NCBI GenBank assembly: GCA_030432025.1
Contig: JAUIIA010000002.1
Location: 124,001-188,000 of the forward strand
Length of the DNA stretch: 64,000 nucleotides
Reading direction: 5' to 3'
Source of the DNA: Alphaproteobacteria bacterium
Lineage (GTDB): Bacteria > Pseudomonadota > Alphaproteobacteria > Micavibrionales > Micavibrionaceae
Position 1 is the first letter of the stretch, and every line of letters begins with the position of its first letter. The position numbers and the translations under genes were made by a program. Below are positions 50,257 to 55,802 of this stretch, in pieces. The notes beneath the pieces were generated by a model. It did not search any database. It was given only the letters and a program-made list of their open reading frames with translations, and was not told where the DNA came from.

Positions 50257-51204
50257 TTACTGGCAAGAACCGCCTGAACCGTCGAAGTAACAACCCGGTG
50301 TAGGACAAACAGCATCATTAAACGTTGAACCGCCGATTGTAACAGTCAAACCTGTCTCGATTGGATCTTCAGAACAGCTACCGCCAACTCTGGCATCGAA
50401 CTTCGCCTGCTCTGGCTCAATAGCATCAACCGCACCGTCTGTACCGGGGTTCGGAAACGCTGCCGCCAAATTATCAGCCCAATTGGTACCGCGGTTTGGA
50501 TCATTACATGGCAAAGGCATGTCTCTCGGGTCAACCAAGCTGAGTTCCAGCAATGTACGGAACTGGTTAATATCGAAATCCTGACATTTCAGGAACAACC
50601 AAACCGCGTTCATCGCGTTACAAGACGCAGCAGGTGGCGGAATCGTCGAATATGTACCACCGGCATAAACATGGCCGAAATTGATACCTGCATACGCAAA
50701 ATACGGCGTACGAACGGTCTGGCTTAAGCTGTTATCCAATTGTGAGGACAGTAGAACGGACGGTGTGCCCGGCGGGTTTGGCCCAGGGTCACCGATAGGA
50801 ATATCCGGCTGCGACACAGGCGGTGGCCCCATGATATCGGGTCTGGAGGCACCTGTTCCGTGGCTTGTAAACAACGGACCGGGCGCAGAGACGTTATCAC
50901 TGAACATAAGGTTCGCACCCGCGGCCAACTCGGCCATACGGTCATCAAAACAGGAATATTCCAAAACACTGTCAGGCTTTAGGATAAGACGTTCTGCAAC
51001 CTCAACCTCACGTTGACCTTCAAGCCATGAACGCGCGGCAAGAACATCATAAAATTCGGGATCACATGCGGGAGAAATATCAATCGGACGCGTCGAAGCA
51101 GCATCCACCACAAGCGGGATGCCGAAAAAAGCTACAAAAAGCAGAATGTTAAAAAGGGGTCTTACCACCACAAAATGCTCACCACGTCCAAAATCACGTA
51201 CCAC
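50257..51204 (-). CDS. Secreted cysteine-containing hypothetical protein
   Basis: The frame opens with a GTG at 51204, but GTG at 51171, preceded by GGTGAG at a proper distance, would give a cleaner signal peptide (VVRPLFNILLFVAFFGIPLVVDA). The mature protein of about 280 residues has many cysteines and Pro/Gly-rich loops, and ends CYFDGSGGSCQ. A NDAVCP motif near the C-terminus echoes NDVICP at the N-terminus of the next gene. No family is recognised. It leads the cluster of exported proteins, 90 bp upstream of the CHAP-like gene. Confidence 0.65.
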   Translation of the reverse strand: MVRDFGRGEHFVVVRPLFNILLFVAFFGIPLVVDAASTRPIDISPACDPEFYDVLAARSWLEGQREVEVAERLILKPDSVLEYSCFDDRMAELAAGANLMFSDNVSAPGPLFTSHGTGASRPDIMGPPPVSQPDIPIGDPGPNPPGTPSVLLSSQLDNSLSQTVRTPYFAYAGINFGHVYAGGTYSTIPPPAASCNAMNAVWLFLKCQDFDINQFRTLLELSLVDPRDMPLPCNDPNRGTNWADNLAAAFPNPGTDGAVDAIEPEQAKFDARVGGSCSEDPIETGLTVTIGGSTFNDAVCPTPGCYFDGSGGSCQ

Positions 51205-51254: not shown

Positions 51255-51686
51255 TTAAAGCATTCCCTGATAATGCCTTTCCGCCATCTCCTCGATCTCA
51301 TCATCGGAAAAATCGAAATTTTTGCCTAATTCCTCGATCAGAACATTACGAATTACCGCATTAACGTCGTCTCCGCTTTCGCACCACATGTCGAGCAAAG
51401 GCCTGCGGAAAATCATCAGCACATCGTCGTCATTAGCGGTTTTGCGCTCAACACCGGGGGAAATCTCCTTGCCGCTTTTATAAACGGCTATCAGGTCGTA
51501 TGGATCATCGATATCCAACTCGTCTTCCAGCGCTTCGTCGGGGAAATCCTCGATGATAAGCGCAACACCGTCACAAAACTCCATAAGTTCTTCAGGCAAT
51601 GTTTCCATCGCCTCCGAAACCATAACCTCCACGTCATCCAGACTTGGCGGAACCGTGTAATTCATAATAATACGTTTTGACCCCAT
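51255..51686 (-). CDS. DUF1025-family zincin-like protein with lost metal site
   Basis: The family (metallopeptidase-like, DUF1025) normally carries HExxH near residue 118. Here that segment reads LIEELGKNF (residues 116-124): the first His is Glu118 and the second is Lys122. The surrounding framework is well kept: TVPPSLDDVEVMVSEAMETLPEEL at the N-terminus and FSDDEIEEMAERHYQG after the site. The start at 51686 (MGSKRI) has AGGG just upstream; a second ATG at 51665 is possible. It is probably a non-catalytic relative whose function is unknown. Confidence 0.8.
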   Translation of the reverse strand: MGSKRIIMNYTVPPSLDDVEVMVSEAMETLPEELMEFCDGVALIIEDFPDEALEDELDIDDPYDLIAVYKSGKEISPGVERKTANDDDVLMIFRRPLLDMWCESGDDVNAVIRNVLIEELGKNFDFSDDEIEEMAERHYQGML

Positions 51687-51845
51687 AACCCTGCCCCCAT
51701 TTTATAATCAGTATTCCCAAACATAGACGACCTGCGCCAAAGATGTCGCACGTCCCTGTTGTGTAAACAGACACCGTGAATCAAGATGCAATTTGAGTCG
51801 TTTTTACGTTACGATGAATCGCGAAACCGAACAATGGAAAGCATT

Positions 51846-52136
51846 ATGACCGCCAAGATTGATCCACAGACCTTACAAGAGGAGTTGTCCACACTGGACG
51901 ACTGGACAAAGCCGGAAGACAGAGACGCGATTGAGAAATCATTCAAATTCAAAAACTTCAACGCGGCTTGGGGCTTCATGTCGCGTATCGCCTTACTTGC
52001 CGAAAAGATGGACCACCATCCCGAATGGTTCAATGTGTATAACAAGGTGGATATCACCCTAACGACACATGATGCGGGCGGGATATCCGAAAAAGACATC
52101 AAGATGGCAAAAGCGATTGATGCATTTGCAGGATGA
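51846..52136 (+). CDS. phhB: 4a-hydroxytetrahydrobiopterin dehydratase (PCD/DCoH)
   Basis: The enzyme recycles pterin cofactor after aromatic hydroxylation. ATG at 51846 is used because GGAAAG lies 6 bp upstream, giving 96 residues, the family length. The active-site motif KMDHHPEW is at about residues 57-64, followed by [18 protein letters not shown]. In alphaproteobacteria it is sometimes a stand-alone protein with no phenylalanine hydroxylase. Here it is 18 bp upstream of the ThDP decarboxylase pair and probably co-transcribed with it. Confidence 0.93.
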
Positions 52137-52154: not shown

Positions 52155-52640
52155 ATGATTGATCAAATCCTCGACACATTAGACGAACACAACATCCACC
52201 AAACGACAGGCGTCCCCGACGGCTGGATCGTCCCCTTGATTAAAGGCCTAAGCGACGACGACCGCTTTGACTACATCGCCGCCGCGCGTGAGGAAGAATG
52301 TTTCGGCATTGCCTCCGGTATCGCCATGAGCGGTAAACGCGCACTCGTGCTGATGCAAAATTCAGGGTTCCTGAACTCCATCGGCGCGTTCACCACGTTG
52401 TGCCAGAAATACCAAACACCTTTTGTGTGCCTAATCGCGCATCGCGGCGGGATTAACGATTCAAACTCTTACGACCCGAATAAATACCGCAGCTTCGAGG
52501 CAACAACAGGCGCGATGAATTTATTCGTCCACCCATCGTCTTGGGAAGACCTGCATGTCAACATCCCTAAGGCTATGGCGCGCTCCGAAGGTGCGGGCGA
52601 ACCCGCTTTTGTCACAATTTCAGAAGGCATGCCCAAATGA
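52155..52640 (+). CDS. Split ThDP decarboxylase, alpha (PYR) subunit, ComD-like
   Basis: The 161 residues match the PYR half of a thiamine diphosphate decarboxylase: GVPDGWIVPL at the N-terminus, then REEECFGIASGIAMSGKRALVLMQNSGFLNS, where the glutamate cluster activates the cofactor. This is the pattern of the alpha subunit of sulfopyruvate decarboxylase (ComD) and of the PYR part of phosphonopyruvate decarboxylase. It overlaps the beta subunit by 4 bp (ATGA). The substrate (a 3-substituted pyruvate) is not fixed by sequence alone. Confidence 0.82.
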   Translation: MIDQILDTLDEHNIHQTTGVPDGWIVPLIKGLSDDDRFDYIAAAREEECFGIASGIAMSGKRALVLMQNSGFLNSIGAFTTLCQKYQTPFVCLIAHRGGINDSNSYDPNKYRSFEATTGAMNLFVHPSSWEDLHVNIPKAMARSEGAGEPAFVTISEGMPK

Positions 52641-53176
52641 AACAAGCGCAAGCCTTCGAACAACTCGTAGAGTTCGCGGAAAAACACGACGCGCTGATTG
52701 TCGCGGATATCGGTTCGCAATCCCTATGGCTGAAAGCCGCCAAAGACCGCCCCGAAAACCTGTATCTGTCAGGCCCGATGGGCATGGCGTCCTCCGTCGC
52801 CCTTGGTGTCGCCATGAGCCATAAAGACCGCCTTGTCATCGCGGCATGCGGCGACGGTGCACTGGGCATGAATATGAGTTCTCTGGCCACCATTTCGGCC
52901 ATTGCGCCGTCAAATATGATTGTCGTCGTCATGGATAACGGTGTCTATGAATTCACCAAATCCCTACCTGTACCGGGTACAGGTGTGGATTGGAGCAACA
53001 TCTCCGCCGCCTACCCCGGCTTCAAAAGCACCATACAATTGCAGGACATGGATTCCGTTGATCCGCAAAGCGGCCCTTACTTCGTTCATGCCGACATCGA
53101 AGGCGGAGAGCTTCCACCAGGCCCCGGCATGCATGCCATTGACGTTCATCACCGCTTCAAAAGCCTGTTCAAATAA
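52637..53176 (+). CDS. Split ThDP decarboxylase, beta (PP) subunit, ComE-like
   Basis: The 179-residue product is the pyrophosphate-binding half: ADIGSQSLWLKAAKDRPENLYLSGPMGMASSVALG near the N-terminus and the ThDP motif GDGALGMNMSSLATISA followed by VVVMDNGVYE. Together with the upstream gene it would make a full heteromeric decarboxylase like sulfopyruvate or phosphonopyruvate decarboxylase. No phosphonate, coenzyme M or sulfonate genes are visible nearby, so the pathway is unknown. Confidence 0.83.
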   Translation: MKQAQAFEQLVEFAEKHDALIVADIGSQSLWLKAAKDRPENLYLSGPMGMASSVALGVAMSHKDRLVIAACGDGALGMNMSSLATISAIAPSNMIVVVMDNGVYEFTKSLPVPGTGVDWSNISAAYPGFKSTIQLQDMDSVDPQSGPYFVHADIEGGELPPGPGMHAIDVHHRFKSLFK

Positions 53177-53250: not shown

Positions 53251-53427
53251 ATGACCACGGTACCAGCAGGAATAGCGGCCCAAGCCGCGCTAACACAACA
53301 GAATGTTGCTCTTTCAGTTATCAAGCAAAATGCACAGGCTGATCAGGCGATCGCAGCGATTCTACAGGAATCGGCTGAAACTGTTGCCGCCGCAACGCGC
53401 GGACGCAACGTCAATATTCGCGTTTAA
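53251..53427 (+). CDS. Small motility-protein-like gene, YjfB-type, 58 aa
   Basis: An ATG at 53251 preceded by AAAAGGA opens a 58-codon frame ending TAA at 53427. The product is helical: VPAGIAAQAALTQQNVALSV, then IKQNAQADQAIAAILQESAE, and a basic tail RGRNVNIRV. The pattern resembles the putative motility (YjfB) family of small helical proteins. It stands between the ThDP pair and the convergent DUF433-DUF5615 gene, 4 bp from the latter's stop. Function is not established. Confidence 0.6.
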   Translation: MTTVPAGIAAQAALTQQNVALSVIKQNAQADQAIAAILQESAETVAAATRGRNVNIRV

Positions 53428-53430
53428 ATA

Positions 53431-54357
53431 TCAGAGATAATCTTCAGGTCCGACAGGCTCCAACGGGATGCCTGATTTATAACTTACGTGCGCACGGACT
53501 TTATTCAGCGCACTCCAATCCACTTCTTCGGCAAGATCAGCATCACGCAAGGACGTGACTTTACTCTGCTCGTCAATATGACGGCCTGTTCTGTATTTCT
53601 TAAAAATATCCGGCAATCTTAATCCCTGCCGCAAACCGTTTCTGGTCAGCCCCATATAAACCGTTCTCTGCGGTTCCTTATTCGCTTCCTTGGCAAAATT
53701 TTGCGCCTGCTTACTACATGCCTCGACCATACCTTCTCTACTCAAAAAGTCGGCCTTCTTCTTACCTTTACGGGTTTTACGCTCGGACTTATCACGCTTG
53801 GGCTTTGCGCTGTCGATATGCACAACGAACGGAAACTGCTTCAGATCATCATCAATACCTTTATAGGCCCTGTTCCTTAGCATCGCTTCCATCGCAAACA
53901 CTTCAGCAAGCTGAACAAAGTCATAATCACGCGTAATGATAACCGCACGGCTTCCGTTACTGGTAAATTCACGCCAGATATCGAGGTCGGCGGCACTCTT
54001 CATGTCTTCCAATTCGATATGACTAACCGCAGCCACACGATCGAGAAGCGCAGGAATGTACTTCCAGCTCAGATTTTCATCAAATAACAACTTGATAGGA
54101 CGGTGGTCCTTGGGACTTTTTCGCGGCGTAATCCCAGCAGCGTTGCGGCGATACTCGGAACGGTCCTCCAAAGAGATCATCGCAAGCGCCTTGCATATAT
54201 CAATATCACCGTCAGTAAGTTCGGGGTGCATCTTCAGGATTTCCGGTGCCCTCATACCCTGGTCACGTAGCGCCAGCACATCGCGCACTTTCATGCCACT
54301 CTGTGTCAGGACGGGGTCCTGCGGATCTCCATGTATACGTTGAGCGAAAATTTCCAT
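53431..54357 (-). CDS. DUF433-DUF5615 fused toxin-antitoxin-like protein
   Basis: Residues about 12-62 (DPVLTQSGMKVRDVLAL, ILKMHPELTDGDI) match DUF433, an HTH antitoxin-like domain. Residues about 88-150 match DUF5615, a PIN-like (Mut7-C) nuclease domain, with KLLFDENLS (Asp93, Glu94), DLDIW (Asp124, Asp126) and IITRDYDF (Asp144, Asp146). These two families usually occur as two adjacent genes of one toxin-antitoxin pair, antitoxin first. Here they are one 308-residue polypeptide in that order, plus a basic linker (KPKRDKSERKTRKGKKK) and a C-terminal part of about 100 residues with no match. Confidence 0.8.
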   Translation of the reverse strand: MEIFAQRIHGDPQDPVLTQSGMKVRDVLALRDQGMRAPEILKMHPELTDGDIDICKALAMISLEDRSEYRRNAAGITPRKSPKDHRPIKLLFDENLSWKYIPALLDRVAAVSHIELEDMKSAADLDIWREFTSNGSRAVIITRDYDFVQLAEVFAMEAMLRNRAYKGIDDDLKQFPFVVHIDSAKPKRDKSERKTRKGKKKADFLSREGMVEACSKQAQNFAKEANKEPQRTVYMGLTRNGLRQGLRLPDIFKKYRTGRHIDEQSKVTSLRDADLAEEVDWSALNKVRAHVSYKSGIPLEPVGPEDYL

Positions 54358-54438: not shown

Positions 54439-55671
54439 TTATGCAACAGCCTTGATAAGCGCGTGGTGCGTCGCCCACAGATGCTGTAGCGTGTTGGCCA
54501 TGTGCTTCACATCTTCCTGAGAGTGCGCGGCCGTGGCAGTCAAACGCAGGCGCTCCGTACCTTTCGGCACAGTCGGATAGTTGATCGGTTGAACATATAT
54601 ATTGTGCTCATCCATCAGGATATTGGACACTTCGCGGCAACAATTCGGCTCACCGACAATAAGCGGCACGATATGACTTTCACCGCGCATAAACGGCAGA
54701 TCGGCAGCTTCCAGCATATCCTTGAACAGTTTTACATTGCGACGCATACGTTCACGCTCAATATCGGAAACCTTCAAGTGCTCGACAGCCGCACGTGCAG
54801 CAGCCAAAACCGCTGGCGGCAAACTCGTTGTGAAGATAAAGCCTGAAGCAAAACTACGTACGCAATCGACAATCTCGGTCGGGCCAGTAATAAAACCGCC
54901 CATACAGCCATAGGCCTTACCGAATGTGCCTTCAATAACATCAATACGGTCAAGCAAGCCGCGCTCTTCGGCAACACCGCCACCACGTGGCCCATACAAA
55001 CCAACGCCATGCACTTCATCAAGATAAGTCAGCGCGTTGTACTTTTCAGCCAGATCGCAAATTTCTTTGATCGGGGCAATATCCCCTTCCATGGAATAAA
55101 CAGATTCAAAAGCAACAATCTTCGGGCGCTTGATATCAACAGATTTCAGCAGCTCCTCAAGATGTTCTAAATCATTGTGGCGGTAGATTTTCTTCTCTGC
55201 CTTGGAATCCTTCATCCCGTGGATCATAGAAGCATGGTTCAATTCATCGGAAAAGATCACACATTCAGGCAGAATTTTACCCATAACGCCCAGCGCACCT
55301 TCATTGGCGACGTATCCGGATGAGAAGATCAAACCGGCTTCTTTTTGATGCAGATCAGCCAGCGACTCTTCCAATTCGACATGATAACGGGTTGTACCGG
55401 AAATATTACGTGTACCGCCTGCGCCTGCGCCTGAATTTTCCAGCGCTTCGTGTGCGGCTTTCAAAACAACAGGATGTTGCCCCATACCGAGATAATCATT
55501 CGAACACCAAATCGTCACTTCGCGCGCTTCGGAACCGTCATCAGGCCTGTACATCGCTTTCGGGAATTGTCCGGCGATACGCTCCAGATTTGCAAATGTA
55601 CGGTAACGCCCTTCGCGCTTCACGTCCTTGATGCAATCTTCAAAGTGGTTTTGGTAATCGAATTGGCTCAT
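54439..55671 (-). CDS. hemA: 5-aminolevulinate synthase
   Basis: ALAS condenses glycine and succinyl-CoA using PLP, the C4 entry to haem synthesis and typical of alphaproteobacteria. ATG at 55671 ([10 protein letters not shown]) is used rather than an upstream TTG. The 410 residues show ARIL-type conserved segments [49 protein letters not shown] and the PLP lysine in [14 protein letters not shown]. It is a single gene, convergent with nothing near. No second ALAS is in the window. Confidence 0.97.
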
Positions 55672-55802
55672 ATGAATACCGTTCTTTTTTATCAATATTG
55701 TTTTAGTTATTGTAAAAGAAAAGCAGAACGTTCTCTAATGGGTCCGTTTTGTATACCCTGAAGATTAGAAAAGCAAGCATTTCAATACAGGTTTCCGCTT
55801 AA

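What the first reader, a model, noticed from the sequence alone, without database searches (positions are those of the whole stretch)
53431..54357. DUF433 antitoxin-like and DUF5615 PIN-like domains fused in one protein with a novel C-terminus
Seen: a DUF433-like segment (about residues 12-62) followed in frame by a DUF5615-like nuclease segment with DEN, DLDIW and TRDYDF (about 88-150). A basic linker and about 100 unmatched residues follow. Known: these families normally occur as two adjacent genes of one toxin-antitoxin pair. A single chain means antitoxin and toxin can no longer be separated by proteolysis of the antitoxin alone, so regulation must differ: self-inhibition, a processing step, or reuse as an RNA-processing enzyme. 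The C-terminal extension may be the regulator or targeting part.
Basis: partly seen in the sequence, partly recalled or inferred. Interest (0 to 1): 0.75.

Follow-up and report, generated by a model that had tools for sequence, protein, structure and literature searches.

The report
Single-chain antitoxin-toxin fusion protein
A protein pair that other bacteria make from two neighbouring genes, an antidote and a probable RNA-cutting poison, is here one continuous protein, and relatives of it sit at the same chromosomal place in many related bacteria, so it looks like an old, inherited variant whose control must differ from the usual pair.

Summary
The 308-aa ORF (53431-54357, minus strand) carries DUF433 (res. 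15-56) and DUF5615 (res. 89-151), both over Pfam's cut-offs, in one open frame. It is no sequencing error: an 83% identical, equally long protein lies in a second genome of the genus, and divergent single-chain relatives occur across the order. Outside the order the domains were separate genes in what I sampled: 0 of 39 DUF5615 loci had both in one ORF, 32 were two-gene pairs. A tree of the nuclease core puts 16 of 16 fused rows on one branch (88/99, not fully significant). Of 29 genomes with both matches, 21 have the fusion within 2 kb upstream of the same metallopeptidase gene. The "novel C-terminus" is partly explained: residues about 155-246 resemble the second half of the nuclease domain (moderate evidence); about 60 residues are extra. 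The DUF433 part lacks the G-x-R signature of stand-alone DUF433 (0 of 25 against 42 of 42). Best reading: a toxin-antitoxin-derived nuclease controlled in cis, comparable to EzeT or CapRel, inherited and often lost. Activity, inhibition and trigger are untested.

The parts
53431..54357 (-). whole fused gene, 308 aa, stop included
54190..54315 (-). DUF433 domain, res. 15-56 (profile comparison 12-66)
   Evidence: 29.2 bits over cut-off 23.6; matches solved DUF433 2ga1
53896..54108 (-). catalytic half of the DUF5615 (PIN-like) domain, res. 84-154, with D93 E94 D124 D144 D146
   Evidence: 35.1 bits over cut-off 23.8 (89-151)
53620..53895 (-). probable second half of the DUF5615 domain, res. 155-246
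   Evidence: joint alignment, forced profile alignment, predicted elements; against: no unforced hit
53740..53811 (-). basic insertion, res. 183-206
   Evidence: 11 K/R of 24; this length in 2 of 25 rows
53434..53619 (-). extra C-terminal tail, res. 247-308
   Evidence: no Pfam match; tail length in 25 relatives 4 to 141
51255..51686 (-). zincin-like metallopeptidase gene, the conserved neighbour
   Evidence: Pfam Zincin_1; 21 of 29 genomes have the fusion within 2 kb upstream
51786..52136 (+). pterin-4a-carbinolamine dehydratase gene, recurrent neighbour
   Evidence: Pfam Pterin_4a; gene maps
54439..55695 (-). PLP-dependent enzyme (called ALAS here by recall), recurrent neighbour on the other side
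   Evidence: Pfam Aminotran_1_2; gene maps

Best explanation
The gene encodes a single-chain protein that arose, probably once, from a two-gene DUF433-DUF5615 toxin-antitoxin operon in an ancestor within the order, probably Micavibrionales (shown: the fusion, conserved acidic residues, clustering of the fused rows in a tree, a shared chromosomal site). The DUF5615 part most likely cuts RNA with its D/E/D/D/D site (inferred from the family). The N-terminal DUF433 module, whose relative in a studied pair binds and neutralises the toxin, now does so in cis: the protein is made in a restrained state and is switched on by a change of conformation or assembly, a trigger molecule or limited proteolysis, not by loss of a separate antitoxin (inferred, by analogy with EzeT and CapRel). 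It serves an accessory stress or defence function, because it is missing from most genomes searched and diverges faster than its neighbours (inferred).
For: Both domains over cut-off in one frame; no other DUF433 or DUF5615 match in the genome; five acidic residues all kept in 21 of 25 relatives; low dN/dS in all parts against G004; 16 of 16 fused rows on one branch, 88/99; canonical pairs elsewhere, 0 of 39 fused; match in 33 of 142 genomes of the order and faster divergence than neighbours; a COG2442 protein neutralises its PIN toxin by complex formation in Synechocystis (PMC3834315, abstract and discussion); EzeT and CapRel show cis-control in single chains (PMC4803016 and PMC9712102, passages).
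Against: The DUF433 part has lost the G-x-R signature seen in all 42 stand-alone ones examined and is its least conserved domain (71% against 91% in the core), which would also fit loss of the antitoxin role. 4 of 25 relatives have one of the five acidic residues replaced. No defence family match and housekeeping surroundings. No experiment shows nuclease activity, toxicity or inhibition; fold searches gave no specific match to a solved PIN nuclease.
Confidence: 0.45

Rival explanations
1. Reused RNA-processing or decay nuclease: the protein is constitutively active, and the DUF433 module is only a nucleic-acid-binding or dimerisation part; no toxin-antitoxin behaviour remains.
For: Loss of the G-x-R signature in 25 of 25 fused DUF433 parts; a fixed chromosomal site among housekeeping genes; purifying selection.
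Against: Match in only 33 of 142 genomes and none in the slot of the regions examined, so it is dispensable; much faster divergence than neighbours.
Confidence: 0.3
2. An ordinary type II toxin-antitoxin system in one chain: DUF433 still binds its own promoter, and a protease removes the N-terminal module to free the toxin.
For: VapB10 binds its promoter and is degraded by ClpXP in the pair (PMC3834315); a 20-residue linker (67-86) between the domains with lower confidence in the model (blocks 59 and 66).
Against: Signature lost; no promoter-like site found upstream of the gene in the scanned stretch, which is weak evidence; in CapRel, a fused system, activation is by binding of a phage protein.
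Confidence: 0.15
3. Sequencing or assembly error joining two genes.
For: None found.
Against: A profile match in L009 crosses one TGA, outside the 314-aa open frame that holds the domains.
Confidence: 0.01

Closest known systems
PIN-COG2442 (DUF433) toxin-antitoxin pairs, e.g. Synechocystis VapBC10 (PMC3834315, abstract and discussion; PMC2701414, passages)
   Same: The same two kinds of domain, in the order antitoxin then nuclease, with the acidic motifs of the nuclease.
   Different: There two genes and two proteins, with a separable, degradable antitoxin; here one chain, with the G-x-R signature of the antitoxin gone. Whether VapC10 itself is a DUF5615 protein was not tested.
EzeT (PMC4803016, passages)
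   Same: Antitoxin part N-terminal and toxin part C-terminal in one polypeptide; deleting the antitoxin part releases toxicity there.
   Different: The toxin is a zeta-type kinase, unrelated to DUF5615.
CapRel (PMC9712102, abstract and passages)
   Same: Fused toxin-antitoxin, silent until a trigger relieves autoinhibition.
   Different: Unrelated domains, antitoxin at the C-terminus, a tRNA-modifying toxin; a phage trigger is shown there and unknown here.
Slr1999 HicA-HicB fusion of Synechocystis (PMC4963859, passages)
   Same: Toxin and antitoxin domains in one protein; auto-regulation suggested by its authors.
   Different: HicAB domains; reported without a fused homologue in any other organism, whereas the present fusion is spread over an order.

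Membership tests
DUF433 (PF04255) | score over Pfam's gathering cut-off | tested here: met
   29.2 against 23.6 bits; but only 8 of 25 relatives match at E 0.01
DUF433 (PF04255) | fold of the solved member 2ga1 | tested here: met
   VIA Z 8.0, rmsd 3.3, 64 residues (unrelated folds reach 8.4 there for another part of the model); Foldseek probability 0.98 but E 0.78; sequence profile E 0.013
DUF433 (PF04255) | G-x-R signature of stand-alone members (empirical, from the 42 examined; not a published definition) | tested here: not met
   42 of 42 stand-alone, 0 of 25 fused at that place; one unrelated NKRL match elsewhere under the loose pattern
DUF5615 (PF18480) | score over Pfam's gathering cut-off | tested here: met
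   35.1 against 23.8 bits; 21 of 25 relatives match at E 0.01
DUF5615 (PF18480) | acidic catalytic-type residues | tested here: met
   D93, E94, D124, D144, D146 present in the window protein; all five in 21 of 25
DUF5615 (PF18480) | second half of the domain present | tested here: inconclusive
   for; against: unforced alignments end near res. 154 and the C-terminal part alone gives probability 1.1 to 2.9
PIN nuclease fold | match to solved PIN structures | tested here: inconclusive
   only generic alpha/beta matches; three insignificant sequence hits: a PIN domain E 0.25, MARF1 0.79, VapC11 0.83
type II PIN-COG2442 toxin-antitoxin system | two separate genes and proteins | tested here: not met
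   one ORF here and in the relatives aligned
type II PIN-COG2442 toxin-antitoxin system | toxicity and neutralisation | not testable with these tools
   needs expression experiments
fused (cis-acting) toxin-antitoxin proteins such as EzeT and CapRel, as a mechanism class | antitoxin-type and toxin-type domains in one chain | tested here: met
fused (cis-acting) toxin-antitoxin proteins such as EzeT and CapRel, as a mechanism class | inhibition in cis, and a trigger | not testable with these tools
   needs expression, RNase and trigger experiments

The most novel reading that the evidence does not exclude
A single-origin family of one-protein immune or stress nucleases in Micavibrio-like bacteria, in which a former DUF433 antitoxin has become a built-in inhibitor and sensor of a DUF5615 nuclease, kept at one chromosomal site and diverging fast because it follows changing triggers.
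Probability: 0.2. Interest if true: 0.72.

Novelty: new variant of a known kind. Interest (0 to 1): 0.5.

Why it matters
Fused toxin-antitoxin proteins are known one by one (EzeT, CapRel, Slr1999). Here a fusion of a different pair appears to have arisen once and stayed fused through much of an order, often at one genomic site and mostly with its acidic residues kept. That gives a natural series (two-gene pairs, a minimal 223-aa fusion, long fusions) in which one can ask directly what an antitoxin domain becomes when it can no longer be degraded apart from its toxin.

Tried and rejected
Sequencing error or chance match: rejected. Mobile-element origin: tblastn of the window protein found nothing in the plasmid and phage collections, and the A4 scan of IMG/VR confirmed none of 71 candidate stretches; these searches reach close relatives only. 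Known defence or phage family: no PADLOC match, insignificant PHROG matches, no NCBIfam match. C-terminus as a second, degenerate nuclease copy: one relative (L111, res. 198-297) gave a hit to the canonical DUF5615 profile, but profile comparison of the C-terminal parts gave probability 2.9 and 1.1 and no other relative showed it; not pursued. Search for a specific solved fold of residues 84-308: none. A decayed copy in the slot of G097 (L169, 310 aa): 4.3 bits, and no real blastp match to two relatives; left open. Papers: DUF433 with DUF5615: 0; DUF5615: 0; DUF433 with fusion and toxin-antitoxin: 4 listed, of which passages of two and the abstract and discussion of a third were read; fused toxin-antitoxin or PIN searches, seen as listings apart from passages of PMC9712102 and PMC4803016; COG2442 or COG4634: 11 listed; Micavibrio with toxin-antitoxin: 2, off topic. 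I saw no description of this fusion in these searches; most subscription journals are not held.

Rows left out: alignment A2 has 25 rows (the window and 24 loci). Left out of the loci: L001 and L008-L014 (the same proteins again), L021 and L034 (near-copies of L020 and L030), L032 (cut by the contig end), L036 and L037 (no clear DUF433 part), and matches given no locus. Locus proteins were read from stop to stop, so their lengths include residues before the start codon. The tree used 16 of the 25 fused and 18 of 30 canonical rows, picked by hand. One search used 24 of the 28 loci of the cluster (those over 240 aa). One search used 39 loci for the class: the 30 returned and 9 of the 12 regions (frames of 200 aa or more); the other three were not used there. 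Of 99 genomes with the metallopeptidase match and no family match, 71 were fetched, plus 5 with a family match elsewhere; in the scan an ORF mostly overlapped by a longer one was dropped, so a slot gene could have been missed. The first motif count used slightly different patterns for the two sets; one search repeated it with the same patterns (strict pattern: 35 of 42 against 0 of 25).

Full report
WHAT IS THERE. The ORF at 53431-54357 on the minus strand encodes 308 residues. Pfam gives DUF433 at residues 15-56 (29.2 bits, cut-off 23.6) and DUF5615 at 89-151 (35.1 bits, cut-off 23.8); nothing else reaches its cut-off. NCBIfam and PADLOC give nothing and PHROGs only insignificant matches. Profiles made from stand-alone DUF433 and DUF5615 proteins match residues 12-66 (probability 96.8) and 83-154 (98.0) of the family alignment.

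REAL AND CONSERVED. G004 of the same genus has an 83% identical protein of the same length; contig length identifies it with MAG NORP248. Against it dN/dS is below 0.08 in every part; dS is saturated in most parts and was then set to 3, so these are rough bounds. Identity is 71% in the DUF433 part, 91% in the catalytic core, 92% in residues 207-246 and 81% in the tail. With a profile of seven members 33 of 142 genomes of the order have a match; some matches are short, and one (G139) belongs to a two-gene pair. In 25 aligned single-chain members D93, D124 and D144 are invariant and E94 and D146 are present in 23 each; all five are present in 21 of 25. Pfam itself sees DUF5615 in 21 and DUF433 in only 8 of the 25 at E 0.01; in the others the DUF433 part rests on the alignment. 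G027 and G079, which have the 223-aa form, are single contigs of 2,458,610 and 2,481,983 bases; I recall, from no call, that these are the sizes of the M. aeruginosavorus strains EPB and ARL-13.

FUSED HERE, SEPARATE ELSEWHERE. In the order six of 142 genomes (G087, G118, G053, G052, G139, G037) carry DUF433 and DUF5615 in separate adjacent frames. In the class, DUF5615 matches occur in 46 of 385 genomes, two of them from this order. I examined 39 loci from outside the order, including the listed matches with an open frame of 200 aa or more: none has both domains in one ORF (E 0.001) and 32 are two-gene pairs. The fused-family profile found 24 of 385 genomes in the class and 23 of 398 in the phylum, each count including the window's own. 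Outside the order, the class matches that cover both parts (six) contain a stop, and none of the listed phylum matches covers both. So the fusion was seen only in this order; this is a sample, not a proof. A tree of 74 columns of the nuclease core puts 16 fused rows on one branch (88/99, short of full significance), next to two canonical proteins with which they form a well supported set (100/99). This fits one fusion event.

SAME PLACE IN THE CHROMOSOME. In the window the gene lies beside a PLP-enzyme gene that I call ALAS by recall (Pfam: Aminotran_1_2) and near genes for a pterin dehydratase and a zincin-like peptidase. Of 33 genomes with a family match 29 also have the peptidase match; in 21 the family match lies within 2 kb upstream of it on the same strand, in eight it lies elsewhere (my count; gene maps). 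I fetched 76 regions around the peptidase gene: 71 of the 99 genomes with the peptidase and no family match, and five with a family match elsewhere (G027, G061, G062, G079, G119). There the only ORF with E below 0.1 is a 180-aa DUF5615-like protein in G040. Ancestral presence with many losses is the simplest reading; transfer by recombination through conserved flanks is not excluded. The protein diverges faster than its neighbours: median pairwise identity about 28% against 64% (ALAS, 105 pairs), 49% (peptidase, 136), 58% (pterin dehydratase, 91), 56% (a binding protein, 55) and 53% (a GcvT-like protein, name recalled, 28); it was the less similar one in 105, 134, 91, 47 and 28 of these pairs. 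Identities correlate at 0.67, 0.56, 0.37, 0.24 and 0.71, so vertical inheritance is only partly borne out.

THE C-TERMINUS. A DUF5615 domain does not end at the TRDYDF motif. Joint alignment with canonical proteins, a forced profile alignment and the predicted order of elements in two models (mean pLDDT 77.6 and 83.6) place strand 177-181 (FVVHI), helix 207-225 and strands 234-238 and 241-244 on the second half of the canonical domain. This is moderate evidence: unforced comparison stops near residue 154, the C-terminal part alone gives no hit, and fold searches of residues 84-308 give only generic alpha/beta matches. The basic linker 183-206 (11 K/R in 24) has that length only in the window protein and its sister; residues 247-308 are extra, and the tail varies from 4 to 141 residues in the 25 relatives.

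THE DUF433 MODULE. The model matches the solved DUF433 protein 2ga1 (Z 8.0, rmsd 3.3, 64 residues; Foldseek probability 0.98 with E 0.78; sequence profile E 0.013). But the G-x-R signature present in 42 of 42 stand-alone DUF433 proteins is missing at that place in 25 of 25 fused ones. What that signature does is unknown to me. So the module kept its helices and lost something that all the separate antitoxins examined keep.

HOW IT MOST LIKELY WORKS. Known: in Synechocystis a COG2442 protein neutralises its PIN partner by forming a complex, activates its own operon and is degraded by ClpXP (PMC3834315, abstract and discussion). In one chain, and with no other DUF433 match in the genome, release by degrading a separate antitoxin is not available. 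Control in cis has precedents: EzeT (PMC4803016, passages) and CapRel (PMC9712102, abstract and passages). Patchy presence with kept acidic residues favours a controlled accessory nuclease over a core RNA-processing enzyme, but the lost signature and the housekeeping surroundings keep the second possibility alive. I put 0.45 on cis-control, 0.30 on a reused constitutive nuclease and 0.15 on an ordinary toxin-antitoxin system in one chain. Nuclease activity, toxicity, inhibition and trigger are all inferred.

VERDICT. It is a new variant of a known kind: more widespread and probably older than the finding suggested, with a less novel C-terminus.

Noticed in passing
window 52155-53176 (+): Two ORFs (161 and 179 aa) overlapping by 4 bases match the N- and C-terminal domains of thiamine-pyrophosphate enzymes: an enzyme made in two halves.
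   Followed up: partly
window 53251-53427 (+): A 58-aa ORF ending 4 bases before the fused gene's stop, on the opposite strand, without a Pfam match; from recall it resembles YjfB-like small proteins, not tested.
   Followed up: partly
window 50257-51204 (-): A 315-aa ORF without a Pfam match whose relatives lie beside the metallopeptidase gene in many of the other genomes mapped (cluster f23).
   Followed up: no
L121 and L122 (G089, G090): Two members of the nuclease family in tandem at the slot; the second has no clear DUF433 match.
   Followed up: partly
L169, 6036-6965 (+) (G097): A 310-aa ORF in the slot between the PfkB and metallopeptidase genes that may be a decayed or very divergent relative; the evidence is weak (4.3 bits).
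   Followed up: partly
L146-L221, stretch upstream of the metallopeptidase gene: The slot is variable: different genomes hold other, unlabelled genes there (for example frames of about 545 and about 700 aa) or nothing.
   Followed up: partly
L111 (G046), residues 198-297 of the fused protein: A second hit to the canonical DUF5615 profile in the C-terminal part of one relative, not borne out by profile comparison.
   Followed up: partly
many fused relatives, between D144 and D146: In 14 of 25 rows the two aspartates of the T-x-D-x-D-F motif are set 7 to 21 residues apart, by an inserted loop, instead of 1.
   Followed up: no
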